This document shows, one piece after another, positions 41,814-47,265 of a DNA stretch of 64,000 nucleotides. Origin of the DNA: Oscillospiraceae bacterium (GTDB taxonomy: Bacteria > Bacillota > Clostridia > Oscillospirales > Oscillospiraceae). The position numbers were made by a program, and so were the translations under genes. Each line of letters starts with the position of its first letter. Position 1 is the stretch's first letter. The stretch is taken from the NCBI GenBank assembly GCA_015067995.1, contig SVLJ01000005.1, positions 62,001-126,000 of the forward strand, given 5' to 3'. Under the pieces are notes generated by a model. It was not told where the DNA came from, did no database searches, and saw nothing but the letters and a program-made list of their open reading frames with translations.

Positions 41814-42878
41814 ATGAACAAGGACAACATCCTGCGCCATGACACTGTTGCCATGGACGAAACCACCGGCGAACTGGTGATCATTGACCAGACCCGACTG
41901 CCGGGCGAAACGGTTTTCCTGCGCCTCTCCCGTCCGGAGGACATCCACGAGGCCATTTATCTGCTGCGGGTGCGGGGCGCGCCTGCCATCGGTGTTGCGG
42001 CAGCCATCGGCATCTATGCCGCCTGCCGTGACCTGCCGGAGGGTGACCGCGCCGCCTTTACCGATGAATTTTTCAAAATCCGCGATTATCTGGCCTCCGC
42101 CCGCCCCACCGCCGTAAACCTCACATGGGCGCTGAACCGGATGGCGCAGGTGGTGGAAGCCCATCCTGCTTCCACGGTATCGGAACTGAAAGCGCTGCTG
42201 CGCCGGGAGGCACTGACCATCCGGGACGAAGACATTCAAGTCTGCCGCGCTCTGGGCGAGTACGGTCTCACCCTCATCCGGGACGGTGACGGCATCCTCA
42301 CCCACTGCAACGCCGGTCAGCTGGCCACCGTCCGTTACGGCACGGCGCTGGCGCCTGTCCATGTGGGACGGGAGCAGGGTATGCAGTTCCGGGTTTTTAC
42401 CGATGAGACCCGTCCGCTGCTGCAGGGCGCACGGCTCTCTGCCTTTGAGCTGGCGGCAGACGGTGTGGACACCACCCTGATCTGCGACAACATGGCCTCC
42501 GCCGTGATGAAGCAGGGCTGGGTGCAGGCGGTTTTCGTAGGCTGTGACCGGGTGGCCGCCAACGGTGACACTGCCAACAAGATCGGCACCTCCGGCGTGG
42601 CCATTCTGGCAAAGCACTACGGCATCCCCTTCTATGTCTGCGCGCCCCTGTCCACCATCGACATGCGCTGTCCTGACGGCAGCGCCATCTGCATCGAGGA
42701 ACGGCCTGCCCACGAGGTAACGGAGCTGTGGTATCAGCAGCGGATGGCTCCGGAGAACATCCGCGTTTACAACCCCGCCTTCGACGTGACGGATGCGGAG
42801 CTGATCACTGCCTTCGTCACGGAAAAGGGCGTGATCCGTCCGCCCTTCGGCCCGGCCTTCCGGGCGCTGTTTGAGTAA
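41814..42878 (+). CDS. mtnA: S-methyl-5-thioribose-1-phosphate isomerase-like (aldose-1-phosphate isomerase)
   Basis: LLRVRGAPAIGVAAAIGI, THCNAGQLATVRYGTALAPV, GCDRVAANGDTANKIGT. Confidence 0.9.
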   Translation: MNKDNILRHDTVAMDETTGELVIIDQTRLPGETVFLRLSRPEDIHEAIYLLRVRGAPAIGVAAAIGIYAACRDLPEGDRAAFTDEFFKIRDYLASARPTAVNLTWALNRMAQVVEAHPASTVSELKALLRREALTIRDEDIQVCRALGEYGLTLIRDGDGILTHCNAGQLATVRYGTALAPVHVGREQGMQFRVFTDETRPLLQGARLSAFELAADGVDTTLICDNMASAVMKQGWVQAVFVGCDRVAANGDTANKIGTSGVAILAKHYGIPFYVCAPLSTIDMRCPDGSAICIEERPAHEVTELWYQQRMAPENIRVYNPAFDVTDAELITAFVTEKGVIRPPFGPAFRALFE

Positions 42879-42890
42879 GGGGGTATCCAC

Positions 42891-43607
42891 ATGCAGGTCT
42901 ATGTAACCGATACCGAGGCCAAACGCCTGATTCTGGACATTGGACGCCGACTGTACGAGCGGCAGTATGTAGCCGCCAATGACGGCAATATCAGCGTCCG
43001 GGTCAGTGAAAACCGCATCTGGGTAACGCCCGCCGGTGTTTCCAAGGGCTATATGACGGAGAACATGCTGGTGTGCATGGATCTGGAGGGCAATGTGCGC
43101 TTCGGCACTGCAAAGCCCTCCTCAGAAACCGGAATGCACCTGCGGCTCTACCGGGAGAATCCGGCCATCCGTGCCGTGGTGCATGCCCATCCCGTCACCG
43201 CCACCTCCTTTGCCGTGGCGCGGGTGCCGCTGGACACCGCCCTGATGACGGAATCTGTGCTGGGACTGGGTGTGGTTCCGGTCACGGAGTACGCCGTCAC
43301 CGGCTCACCGGAGATCGCCGAGTCGGTCGTCCCCTTCTGCCGCGACTACAACGCCGTGCTCCTGGCCAACCACGGCGCCCTGACATGGGGCGCGGATGCC
43401 ATGCAGGCTTATTACCGGATGGAAACGCTGGAATGCTGCGCCTCCGTCATGAAAAATCTGGGCTATCTGAATGTACCGCCCCATGTGCTGACCCGCTCGC
43501 AGGTCTATGAGCTGCTGGAGCTGCGGGAACGGCAGGGCGTTTTCACCGGCGGCACGCCCCTGTGCGCCGAGGATCTTGCGAAGAAATATCAAACATCGAA
43601 AGGATGA
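42891..43607 (+). CDS. Class II aldolase/adducin family protein (fuculose-1-phosphate aldolase-like)
   Basis: AANDGNISVRV, VVHAHPVTATSFAV, LLANHGALTWG. Confidence 0.9.
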   Translation: MQVYVTDTEAKRLILDIGRRLYERQYVAANDGNISVRVSENRIWVTPAGVSKGYMTENMLVCMDLEGNVRFGTAKPSSETGMHLRLYRENPAIRAVVHAHPVTATSFAVARVPLDTALMTESVLGLGVVPVTEYAVTGSPEIAESVVPFCRDYNAVLLANHGALTWGADAMQAYYRMETLECCASVMKNLGYLNVPPHVLTRSQVYELLELRERQGVFTGGTPLCAEDLAKKYQTSKG

Positions 43608-43612
43608 ATCAT

Positions 43613-44905: not shown

Positions 44906-44917
44906 AGGAGAGATGGA

Positions 44918-45730
44918 ATGAACTACGAACATGTACAGGAAGCAGCCGCATACGTCCGGAACAAGCTTGCCCGTCAGCCCAGGGTGGGCATGATCCTCGG
45001 CTCCGGTCTGGGCGGCATCGCCGACGAGATCGAAAGCAAGGTGGAAATTCCCTATCGGGAAATTCCCCATTTTGCCTGCTCCACCGCACCCGGCCATAAG
45101 GGGCAGCTGGTTTGCGGCACTCTCAGCGGTACAGATGTCCTGTGTATGCAGGGACGACTCCATTATTACGAGGGTCACAGCATGCAAGACATCATTTTCC
45201 CCATCCGGGTAATGAAGCTGCTGGGCATTGAGACCCTCATCGTCACCAACGCCGCCGGCGGTGTCAATCTGGAGTTCCATGCCGGCGATCTGATGCTCAT
45301 TGAAGATCACATCAATTTCCTGCCCAATCCTCTCATCGGACCCAACGATGCGGAATTCGGTCCCCGCTTCTGCGACATGACCTACACCTACACCCCGGCT
45401 CTCCGTGAGCTGGCGCAGCAGACGGCGCAGCACATGAACATTCCCCTGCGCCGGGGCGTGTATATGTCTGTTACCGGCCCCAGCTTTGAGACCCCGGCAG
45501 AGATCCGGGCTTTCCGTACTCTGGGCGCTGATGCCGTGGGCATGTCCACGGTGCCGGAAGCCATCGCCGCCTCCCACTGCGGGATGCAGGTGCTGGCTTT
45601 CTCCCTCATCACCAACATGGCCGCCGGTATCACCGGTGAACAGCTGTCAGAGGAGGAGGTCATCGAGATCGGCAGTCGGCAGGGGCACATACTCTGCGCT
45701 CTGGTAACAGCGATCGCGGCCAGGCTCTGA
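44918..45730 (+). CDS. Purine-nucleoside phosphorylase (PNP/MTAP family)
   Basis: GSGLGGIAD, TNAAGGVNLEFHAGDLMLIEDHINF, FSLITNMAAGI. Confidence 0.9.
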   Translation: MNYEHVQEAAAYVRNKLARQPRVGMILGSGLGGIADEIESKVEIPYREIPHFACSTAPGHKGQLVCGTLSGTDVLCMQGRLHYYEGHSMQDIIFPIRVMKLLGIETLIVTNAAGGVNLEFHAGDLMLIEDHINFLPNPLIGPNDAEFGPRFCDMTYTYTPALRELAQQTAQHMNIPLRRGVYMSVTGPSFETPAEIRAFRTLGADAVGMSTVPEAIAASHCGMQVLAFSLITNMAAGITGEQLSEEEVIEIGSRQGHILCALVTAIAARL

Positions 45731-45759
45731 TGAAAAACACTCACAAGGAGGAACATATC

Positions 45760-47265
45760 ATGGATTACCGTAAATTGCAGAACGGCAGCGACATCCGCGG
45801 TGTAGCGCTGGAGGGTGTGGCCGGTCAGCCCATCACTCTGACAGAGCAGGCCTGCCGGGATATTGGCCGCGGCTTTGCTCTGTGGCTCATGGCAAAAACC
45901 GGGAAGAAGGAGAATCTTCGGGTCTCTGTAGGCCGCGACTCCCGTCTATCCGGTGAGACGCTGTGTGGCTGGCTCTGTGAAGCCATGGTGGCACAGGGTC
46001 TGCAGCTCACCAACTTTGGCATGGCCAGCACCCCCGCCATGTTCATGTCCACCGTCACCGAGGGATACAACTATGACGGTGCCGTGATGATCACCGCCAG
46101 CCACCTGCCCTTCAACCGCAACGGCTTCAAGTTCTTCACACCGGAGGGCGGTCTGGAATCCGCCGACATCAAGGCCATTCTGGCCTATGCCGGCGGTGAC
46201 GAAGTCACCGGTCTCCCCGCCGGAACGCTGAGCGACGGCGCATTCATGGACACCTATGCCGCCATTCTGGCAGACAAGGTGCGTCAGGCCACCGGTGAGG
46301 AAACGCCGTTGGCGGGACTGCGCATTGTGGTGGACGCCGGCAACGGCGCAGGCGGCTTCTACGCCGATAAGGTGCTGCGTCCTCTGGGCGCCAACACCGA
46401 CGGCAGCCGGTATCTGGACCCTGACGGCAGCTTCCCCAACCATGTGCCCAATCCCGAGGACAAGGAGGCCATGGAGAGCATCATGGAGGCCGTCCGTGAG
46501 ACCAAGGCAGACCTTGGCATCATCTTTGACACCGACGTAGACCGTGCCGGTGCCGTGCTGGCGGACGGCAGCGAGCTGAACCGCAACCGCATCATTGCCA
46601 TGCTGGCCGCCATCCTGCTGCGGGAGCATCCCGGCACCACCATTGTCACCGACTCCATCACCTCCACCGGCCTTGCCAAATTCATTGAGGCCAAGGGCGG
46701 CGTGCATCACCGGTTCAAGCGCGGCTATCGCAACGTCATCAACGAGTCCATCCGCCTTAACGAACTGGGACAGGACAGCCAGCTGGCCATTGAGACCTCC
46801 GGCCACGGTGCTCTGAAGGAAAACTACTTCCTGGACGACGGCGCGTATCTGGTGACCAAGCTCCTCATCGAGCTGGCCCGTGGCCGCAAGGAAGGCTATA
46901 CGCTGGAATCCCTCATCGCCGAGCTGGAGGAGCCCGCCGAGAGCCGTGAGTTCCGCATGAACATCCAGCTGGAGGACTTCAAGTCCTACGGGCAGCAGGT
47001 CATCTCTGATCTGCAGGCCTATGCGGAAAAACAGGCCGGCTGGTCTCTGGCGCCCAGCAACTATGAAGGCGTCCGGGTGAATCTGGACGAGGCACATGGC
47101 GGTGGATGGTTCCTGCTGCGCCTGTCCCTTCACGATCCCCTGCTCCCCCTGAACATCGAGAGCAATGTTTCCGGCGGCGTAAAGAAGATCGCCGGTGAGC
47201 TGGCGGGATTCCTCTCCGGCTATGACAAGCTGGACACCGCCGCTCTCACCGCCTTTGCAAAGTAA
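45760..47265 (+). CDS. Phosphomannomutase/phosphoglucomutase family protein
   Basis: NGSDIRGVALEG, MITASHLPFNRNGFKFF, DTDVDRAGAV, ETSGHGALKENYFLDDGAY. Confidence 0.85.
   Translation: MDYRKLQNGSDIRGVALEGVAGQPITLTEQACRDIGRGFALWLMAKTGKKENLRVSVGRDSRLSGETLCGWLCEAMVAQGLQLTNFGMASTPAMFMSTVTEGYNYDGAVMITASHLPFNRNGFKFFTPEGGLESADIKAILAYAGGDEVTGLPAGTLSDGAFMDTYAAILADKVRQATGEETPLAGLRIVVDAGNGAGGFYADKVLRPLGANTDGSRYLDPDGSFPNHVPNPEDKEAMESIMEAVRETKADLGIIFDTDVDRAGAVLADGSELNRNRIIAMLAAILLREHPGTTIVTDSITSTGLAKFIEAKGGVHHRFKRGYRNVINESIRLNELGQDSQLAIETSGHGALKENYFLDDGAYLVTKLLIELARGRKEGYTLESLIAELEEPAESREFRMNIQLEDFKSYGQQVISDLQAYAEKQAGWSLAPSNYEGVRVNLDEAHGGGWFLLRLSLHDPLLPLNIESNVSGGVKKIAGELAGFLSGYDKLDTAALTAFAK

What the first reader, a model, noticed from the sequence alone, without database searches (positions are those of the whole stretch)
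41814..47265. Deamination-first 5'-deoxyadenosine/MTA disposal cluster (DHAP-shunt variant)
Gene order: mtnA-like isomerase, class II aldolase, MTA/SAH/5'-dAdo-type deaminase, PNP, phosphohexomutase. Known DHAP-shunt loci (drdPIA, or mtnP/mtnA/ald2) split the adenine nucleoside directly or use a kinase. Here a deaminase precedes a PNP whose base-recognition segment reads FSLITNMAAG, with the Asn typical of 6-oxopurine PNPs rather than the Asp of MTAP. Predicted route: 5'-dAdo or MTA to the inosine analogue, then 5-deoxy(methylthio)ribose-1-P, ribulose-1-P, then DHAP plus (methylthio)acetaldehyde.
Basis: partly seen in the sequence, partly recalled or inferred. Interest (0 to 1): 0.8.

Follow-up and report, generated by a model that had tools for sequence, protein, structure and literature searches.

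The report
Deamination-first 5'-deoxynucleoside salvage operon
A gut Oscillospiraceae genome carries one operon whose enzymes can strip the amino group from used-up SAM leftovers (5'-deoxyadenosine or methylthioadenosine), split them and feed the sugar into glycolysis, a new arrangement of a known disposal route that also occurs in related gut bacteria with other first steps.

Summary
Five co-directional genes, gaps of -4 to 29 bp, lie between a near-consensus promoter and a strong terminator: mtnA, class II aldolase, MTA/SAH/5'-deoxyadenosine-family deaminase, PNP-I, phosphohexomutase. The PNP is of the inosine/guanosine family, not MTAP. Deaminase and mtnA lie together in 12 sampled loci from at least three families (9 of 43 order-level genomes holding both; 0.1 expected). 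Most have deaminase-PNP-mtnA; one has deaminase-PNP-mtnA-aldolase. Within the genus, the mtnA locus carries alternative front ends, never two at once: a DeoD-type PNP (14), this deaminase (3) or 5-methylthioribose kinase (1). Aldolases of the window's subfamily (about 55% identity) are fused to that kinase, which ties the aldolase to 5-deoxyribulose/methylthioribulose-1-phosphate. The home genome lacks the kinase and MTAP but has unlinked DeoD and MTAN-like genes. The phosphohexomutase is probably a passenger. Not shown: any activity, or the choice among 5'-deoxyadenosine, MTA and adenosine. Deamination-first chemistry is known from Pseudomonas and Methanocaldococcus; joining it to the DHAP-shunt aldolase in one operon was not found in the literature searched. 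New variant of a known kind.

The parts
41752..41779 (+). Sigma-70-type promoter TTGACG-16-TATAAT upstream of mtnA
   Evidence: 11 of 12 consensus positions, TG before the -10; consensus match only. About 25-30 nt of leader; no Rfam family in the window
41814..42878 (+). [quoted passage not shown]
   Evidence: TIGR00512 404.6 bits over cut-off 279; nearest PDB 1t9k
42891..43607 (+). class II aldolase (238 aa), proposed 5-deoxyribulose-1-P / methylthioribulose-1-P aldolase
   Evidence: PF00596; below every NCBIfam specificity cut-off including MtnB; E79, H98, H100 and H161 invariant in 14 relatives; same subfamily fused to MtnK elsewhere
43604..44905 (+). metal-dependent adenosine-type deaminase, MTA/SAH/5'-deoxyadenosine deaminase family (433 aa)
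   Evidence: PF01979; metal and catalytic residues of TM0936 all conserved, Arg136 and Arg148 absent; in the tree with mtnA-linked deaminases
44918..45730 (+). purine nucleoside phosphorylase I (inosine/guanosine type, 270 aa)
   Evidence: TIGR01700 357 bits over cut-off 293; Glu201/Asn243 equivalents present; the only PNP-I in the genome; set apart from the genus's housekeeping PNPs
45760..47265 (+). alpha-D-phosphohexomutase-family protein (501 aa), specificity unknown; co-transcribed but probably a passenger
   Evidence: PF02878/PF02879/PF02880; an 87% identical homologue in G036 and others elsewhere are not near mtnA
47280..47318 (+). intrinsic terminator at the end of the operon
   Evidence: 60-nt fold -29 kcal/mol, z = -6.6, hairpin followed by a U run

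Best explanation
The operon is a salvage and disposal pathway for 5'-deoxy-5'-substituted adenosines made from SAM (5'-deoxyadenosine from radical-SAM enzymes and/or MTA). It is a DHAP shunt with a deamination-first entry. Proposed steps: (1) the deaminase converts 5'-deoxyadenosine (or MTA) to 5'-deoxyinosine (or 5'-methylthioinosine); (2) PNP-I phosphorolyses this to hypoxanthine and 5-deoxyribose-1-phosphate (or methylthioribose-1-phosphate); (3) MtnA isomerises the sugar to 5-deoxyribulose-1-phosphate; (4) the class II aldolase cleaves it to DHAP and acetaldehyde (or methylthioacetaldehyde). Shown here: gene content, operon anatomy, family membership, recurrence, replaceability of the first step, and lack of MtnK and MTAP in the genome. 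Inferred: every catalytic step, their order and the substrates. The terminal phosphohexomutase is not needed for this route.
For: Operon anatomy: gaps of 12, -4, 12 and 29 bp, promoter and terminator. PNP is PNP-I, not MTAP, so a 6-oxo nucleoside is its expected substrate. Deaminase within 3 kb of mtnA in 9 of 43 order-level genomes that have both, 0.12 expected, plus G013, G021 and L010; a PNP lies between them in seven of these loci, and L124 has deaminase-PNP-mtnA-aldolase. In the genus the mtnA locus carries DeoD-type PNP (14 genomes), deaminase (3) or MtnK (1), never two of these. Aldolase-MtnK fusions. No MtnK in the genome, and its five phosphorylase-family genes are PNP-I, DeoD, MTAN-like and two uridine-phosphorylase-like, so 5-deoxyribose freed by hydrolysis would have no recognised kinase. 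The window PNP is on the side of the mtnA-linked PNPs (branch 98/96), and grouping it with the genus's housekeeping PNPs is rejected at p-AU 0.028.
Against: The genome has an unlinked DeoD and an MTAN-like nucleosidase that could act on adenine nucleosides directly, so deamination may not be the only route. In G013 and G021 the PNP is not linked. Only about half of the deaminase-mtnA loci have a linked aldolase. The aldolase passes no curated specificity cut-off, and a source annotates a 57% identical relative as MtnB. No residue test separates 5'-deoxy from 5'-hydroxy substrates; the His257 equivalent is missing even in housekeeping PNPs. The genome is 92% complete, so absences are provisional.
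Confidence: 0.72

Rival explanations
1. General purine ribonucleoside catabolism: the deaminase acts on adenosine, PNP makes ribose-1-phosphate, the phosphohexomutase serves as phosphopentomutase giving ribose-5-phosphate, and MtnA plus aldolase handle ribulose-1-phosphate to give DHAP and glycolaldehyde.
For: The PNP is the only PNP-I in the genome and must also serve ordinary purine salvage. A mutase follows the PNP directly, recalling the drm-pupG (phosphopentomutase-PNP) pair of Bacillus (from memory). Promiscuity of methionine-salvage enzymes towards ribose is reported (PMC6302742). Some relatives have BMP/Nup-type ABC transporter genes beside mtnA.
Against: The deaminase is of the MTA/SAH/5'-deoxyadenosine family. 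MtnA and the aldolase recur with MtnK, whose substrates are 5-deoxy- and 5-methylthioribose. Phosphohexomutase homologues are not linked to PNP or mtnA elsewhere.
Confidence: 0.13
2. Methionine salvage of MTA: the aldolase-like protein is a MtnB-type dehydratase and the operon feeds a methionine-regeneration branch.
For: MtnB belongs to the same superfamily; a 57% identical relative is annotated as methylthioribulose-1-phosphate dehydratase by a source. One relative, G020, has an MtnW-family RuBisCO-like gene in its mtnK-mtnA-aldolase locus.
Against: TIGR03328 mtnB 93 bits, below its cut-off of 137. A profile of the subfamily matches PDB FucA-type aldolases, including 6btd, far better than MtnB 4m6r (139.7 and 129.7 against 55.7 bits). 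The classical pathway after MtnB needs dioxygen (PMC6302742), which does not suit an anaerobe. No other salvage gene lies in the operon.
Confidence: 0.08
3. The deaminase mainly recycles SAH (to S-inosylhomocysteine) and its place in this operon is incidental.
For: Members of this family, such as TM0936, deaminate SAH.
Against: Arg136 and Arg148 of TM0936 (SAH carboxylate contacts, from memory) are absent in the window protein; Arg136 is present in 1 of 11 mtnA-linked and 25 of 32 other deaminases (p 9e-5, not corrected for phylogeny). Deaminase and mtnA recur together in other families.
Confidence: 0.07

Closest known systems
DHAP shunt (mtnK-mtnA-ald2 in E. coli ATCC 25922; mtnP-mtnA-ald2 in Rhodospirillum rubrum)
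   Same: MtnA-type isomerase and class II aldolase; proposed products DHAP and an aldehyde (PMC10986504, PMC12632272)
   Different: Entry by a deaminase and PNP-I instead of nucleosidase plus MtnK or MTAP-type MtnP; no MtnK or MTAP found in the genome
5-deoxyribose disposal clusters (drdK-drdI-drdA of Bacillus thuringiensis; phosphorylase version predicted in Clostridium phytofermentans)
   Same: Isomerase and aldolase acting on 5-deoxyribulose-1-phosphate, clustered genes (PMC6079011)
   Different: No kinase; the phosphorylase is of the 6-oxopurine type and is preceded by a deaminase; the aldolase is only a superfamily relative of DrdA 6btd (65 bits)
Methanocaldococcus jannaschii DadD - MTIP - MtnA route
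   Same: 5'-deoxyadenosine deaminase, then phosphorolysis of 5'-deoxyinosine, then MtnA (PMC6302742)
   Different: In M. jannaschii the ketose phosphate is proposed to go to 6-deoxy-5-ketofructose-1-phosphate (PMC6079011); here a class II aldolase lies in the same operon, and the phosphorylase is PNP-I
Pseudomonas aeruginosa MTA deaminase and methylthioinosine phosphorylase (PA3170, MTIP)
   Same: Deamination before phosphorolysis; deaminase of the same family (PDB 4dyk)
   Different: P. aeruginosa MTIP is of the MTAP-like family; the window PNP scores 70 bits to that model (cut-off 223)
mtnA-aldolase-DeoD loci of the same genus (for example G007, G028, G029)
   Same: Same isomerase (about 58%) and aldolase (about 50%) pair
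   Different: A DeoD-type PNP (TIGR00107), which can take 6-amino purines, stands where the deaminase stands here

Membership tests
DHAP shunt | MtnA-type 5-substituted ribose-1-phosphate isomerase | tested here: met
   TIGR00512 404.6 bits over cut-off 279
DHAP shunt | class II aldolase clustered with mtnA | tested here: met
   PF00596, 12 bp downstream of mtnA; the subfamily is fused to MtnK elsewhere
DHAP shunt | entry by MTR/5-deoxyribose kinase (MtnK) or MTAP-type phosphorylase (MtnP) | tested here: not met
   no TIGR01767 match in the genome; the five PF01048 genes are PNP-I, DeoD, MTAN-like and two uridine-phosphorylase-like, none MTAP
DHAP shunt | DHAP and an aldehyde formed from 5-deoxyribulose-1-P or MTRu-1-P | not testable with these tools
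   needs an enzyme assay
Deamination-first MTA/5'-deoxyadenosine salvage (PA3170/MTIP; DadD/MTIP) | deaminase of the MTA/SAH/5'-dAdo family with an intact metal and catalytic site | tested here: met
   PF01979; equivalents of TM0936 H55, H57, H200, E203, H228 and D279 conserved; substrate not tested
Deamination-first MTA/5'-deoxyadenosine salvage (PA3170/MTIP; DadD/MTIP) | phosphorylase is an orthologue of methylthioinosine phosphorylase | tested here: not met
   NF006599 70 bits, cut-off 223; the protein is PNP-I, TIGR01700 357 bits
PNP-I (inosine/guanosine type) | TIGR01700 above cut-off; Glu201 and Asn243 equivalents | tested here: met
   (human PNP sequence written from memory)
Universal methionine salvage | MtnB dehydratase | tested here: not met
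   TIGR03328 93 bits, cut-off 137; FucA-type solved structures match far better than MtnB
Universal methionine salvage | MtnC/MtnW-X and MtnD present in the genome | not tested

The most novel reading that the evidence does not exclude
Gut Clostridia use a distinct, recurrent version of the DHAP shunt in which 5'-deoxyadenosine (or MTA) is first deaminated and then cleaved by a purine phosphorylase of the ordinary inosine type. The mtnA-aldolase core is a fixed module onto which three interchangeable entries (MtnK, DeoD-type PNP, deaminase plus PNP-I) have been fitted, even within one genus.
Probability: 0.62. Interest if true: 0.6.

Novelty: new variant of a known kind. Interest (0 to 1): 0.52.

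Why it matters
5'-Deoxyadenosine inhibits radical-SAM enzymes and must be removed by every anaerobe that depends on them. Known disposal loci account for only part of bacteria, and DHAP-shunt surveys that look for MtnK or MTAP next to mtnA would miss this version. It gives a testable route in abundant gut bacteria, predicts hypoxanthine and ammonia rather than adenine as products, and shows one pathway core being reused with three entries within one genus, a natural experiment in pathway evolution.

Tried and rejected
(1) Loss of the 5'-OH-binding His257 (human PNP) as a sign of 5'-deoxy specificity: rejected, the clostridial housekeeping PNPs lack it too. (2) The Asn of FSLITN as something special to this locus: it is present in every PNP-I compared. 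(3) The phosphohexomutase as a conserved pathway member: rejected, homologues up to 87% identical lie in unrelated contexts. (4) Riboswitch control: none found in the window, and the leader is about 25-30 nt. (5) The aldolase as a direct DrdA orthologue by sequence: not supported, DrdA 6btd is only the seventh solved structure by the single sequence; the link comes from the MtnK fusions instead. (6) A single clade of all mtnA-linked deaminases or PNPs: neither shown nor rejected (p-AU 0.26 and 0.097). (8) 'Never both' DeoD and deaminase at the mtnA locus fits alternative entries, but the numbers are too small to be strong alone.
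Full report
What is there. The window lies in a 2.3-Mb genome (92% complete, G000, contig C18) that shares its genus with G012; G012's contig C18 has the same length (68,283 bp) and identical deaminase and PNP proteins as GenBank 'Oscillibacter sp. RGIG4644', so the host is an Oscillospiraceae-type gut anaerobe. Five + strand genes follow one another at 41814-47265 with gaps of 12, -4, 12 and 29 bp. A TTGACG-16-TATAAT promoter (11 of 12 positions) lies 35 bp before mtnA and a hairpin with a U run (z = -6.6) follows the last gene. 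No Rfam element is found in the window.

The PNP. It has the Glu201 and Asn243 equivalents of 6-oxopurine PNPs (the human sequence was written from memory). This is a family trait: all PNP-I sequences compared have it. The 5'-OH-binding His257 equivalent is missing, but also in housekeeping PNPs of the same genus, so it says nothing on 5'-deoxy preference. It is the only PNP-I in the genome. In the tree it falls on the side of the mtnA-linked PNPs of other families (branch 98/96; nine rows, eight of them mtnA-linked), and grouping it with the genus's housekeeping PNPs is rejected at p-AU 0.028. That test is moderate and long branches are in play.

The deaminase. All metal and catalytic positions of TM0936 are conserved. 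The two arginines that, from memory, hold the SAH carboxylate in TM0936 (Arg136, Arg148) are absent. Arg136 is present in 1 of 11 mtnA-linked deaminases and 25 of 32 others (Fisher p 9e-5, not corrected for relatedness). PA3170 of P. aeruginosa lacks both as well. This fits a substrate without an amino-acid tail (5'-deoxyadenosine, MTA or adenosine), as an inference.

Recurrence. In the same genus, G013 has mtnA (78%), aldolase (73%) and deaminase (71%) together, and G021 has aldolase-mtnA-deaminase; both have their PNP elsewhere. In 298 genomes of the order, 43 have both a deaminase and an mtnA above the thresholds used; in 9 of them the two lie within 3 kb (0.12 expected if placed at random, P about 1e-14). 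Fetching those loci showed deaminase-PNP-mtnA in G302, G304, G168, G112 and G323, deaminase-PNP-mtnA-aldolase in G077, and deaminase-mtnA-aldolase in G154 and G274; L010 also has deaminase-PNP-mtnA. The gene order differs from the window's, so what is kept is the functional set, not one inherited order. In the loci with DAGK-secD-secF-lepA downstream the locus is a stable neighbourhood.

Alternative entries. Of 26 genomes of the genus (own included) with an mtnA of at least 50% identity, 14 have a DeoD-type PNP (TIGR00107) beside mtnA, 3 have the deaminase, 1 (G020) has MtnK (TIGR01767), and 8 have none of these; none has two. The deaminase thus stands where another enzyme for making 5-deoxyribose-1-phosphate stands in relatives. 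The aldolase subfamily is fused to MtnK in a single ORF in G084 and in seven further protein clusters, one on a 754-kb contig; the fused aldolase in G084 is about 57% identical to the window's. A fusion with 5-methylthioribose kinase is the best evidence that this aldolase serves 5-deoxyribulose-1-phosphate or methylthioribulose-1-phosphate. Caveat: for G084 a public record calls the kinase as a separate 405-aa protein (P0121).

What the rest of the genome allows. No MtnK was found. The five phosphorylase-superfamily genes are this PNP-I, an unlinked DeoD, an MTAN-like nucleosidase just under its cut-off, and two uridine-phosphorylase-like proteins. So free 5-deoxyribose from the nucleosidase would have no recognised kinase, while phosphorolysis after deamination leads straight to MtnA's substrate. 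The unlinked DeoD remains a possible direct route, so deamination is not shown to be obligatory.

The phosphohexomutase. It is co-transcribed by position, but homologues (87% in G036, 75% in G056, others) lie in unrelated contexts and it passes no specificity cut-off. A phosphopentomutase role, moving ribose-1-phosphate from ordinary inosine to ribose-5-phosphate, is possible and untested.

Literature. The DHAP shunt is described with MtnK or MtnP entries (PMC10986504, PMC12632272), and 5-deoxyribose disposal with kinase or phosphorylase entries (PMC6079011). Deamination before phosphorolysis is known for MTA in P. aeruginosa and for 5'-deoxyadenosine in M. jannaschii; the review PMC6302742 also suggested that an aldolase could follow. 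Searches for papers joining deaminase, methylthioinosine or deoxyinosine and aldolase found no description of this operon; the library lacks most subscription journals. So the combination appears new here, while each step is known: a new variant of a known kind.

Verdict. Observation confirmed; interpretation well supported as a pathway prediction and unproven as biochemistry. Confidence in the deamination-first DHAP shunt is 0.72; the choice between 5'-deoxyadenosine and MTA is open, with 5'-deoxyadenosine somewhat likelier in an anaerobe that relies on radical-SAM enzymes (inference, not tested here).

Noticed in passing
L127:2716-4704 (G084) and proteins P0122-P0128: Class II aldolase fused in one ORF to 5-methylthioribose kinase (TIGR01767 408 bits), a ready-made link between first and last steps of the DHAP shunt.
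   Followed up: yes
L074:856-8346 (G020, same genus): mtnK-mtnA-DeoR regulator-two transketolase halves-RuBisCO-like protein (MtnW family, below cut-off)-aldolase in one locus; looks like another undescribed branch of 5-methylthioribose metabolism.
   Followed up: partly
L014, L097-L100 (Oscillibacter-type genomes): A different deaminase clade with both Arg136 and Arg148 sits next to PNP, with an iron-dependent alcohol dehydrogenase and DeoR regulator nearby; in G012 and G034 a nucleoside-type ABC transporter and a second mtnA-aldolase pair lie within about 20 kb.
   Followed up: partly
L071, L078 (G023, G036): BMP-type binding protein and ABC nucleoside-type transporter genes beside mtnA and DeoD, suggesting uptake of outside 5'-deoxynucleosides.
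   Followed up: no
window 48453-52083 (-): Three tandem M20-type amidohydrolases of 394 aa each (TIGR01891), next to a peptidase T-like gene (47329-48447) and an oligopeptide ABC transporter (52187-56144).
   Followed up: partly
window 35744-39097, 60313-61518 and 391-1839: Further M20 amidohydrolase and dipeptidase genes; the window is unusually rich in peptide and amide hydrolases.
   Followed up: no
window 41286-47133 (- strand): Very long antisense ORFs (up to 662 aa) opposite the operon, an effect of codon composition in a GC-rich genome rather than genes.
   Followed up: no
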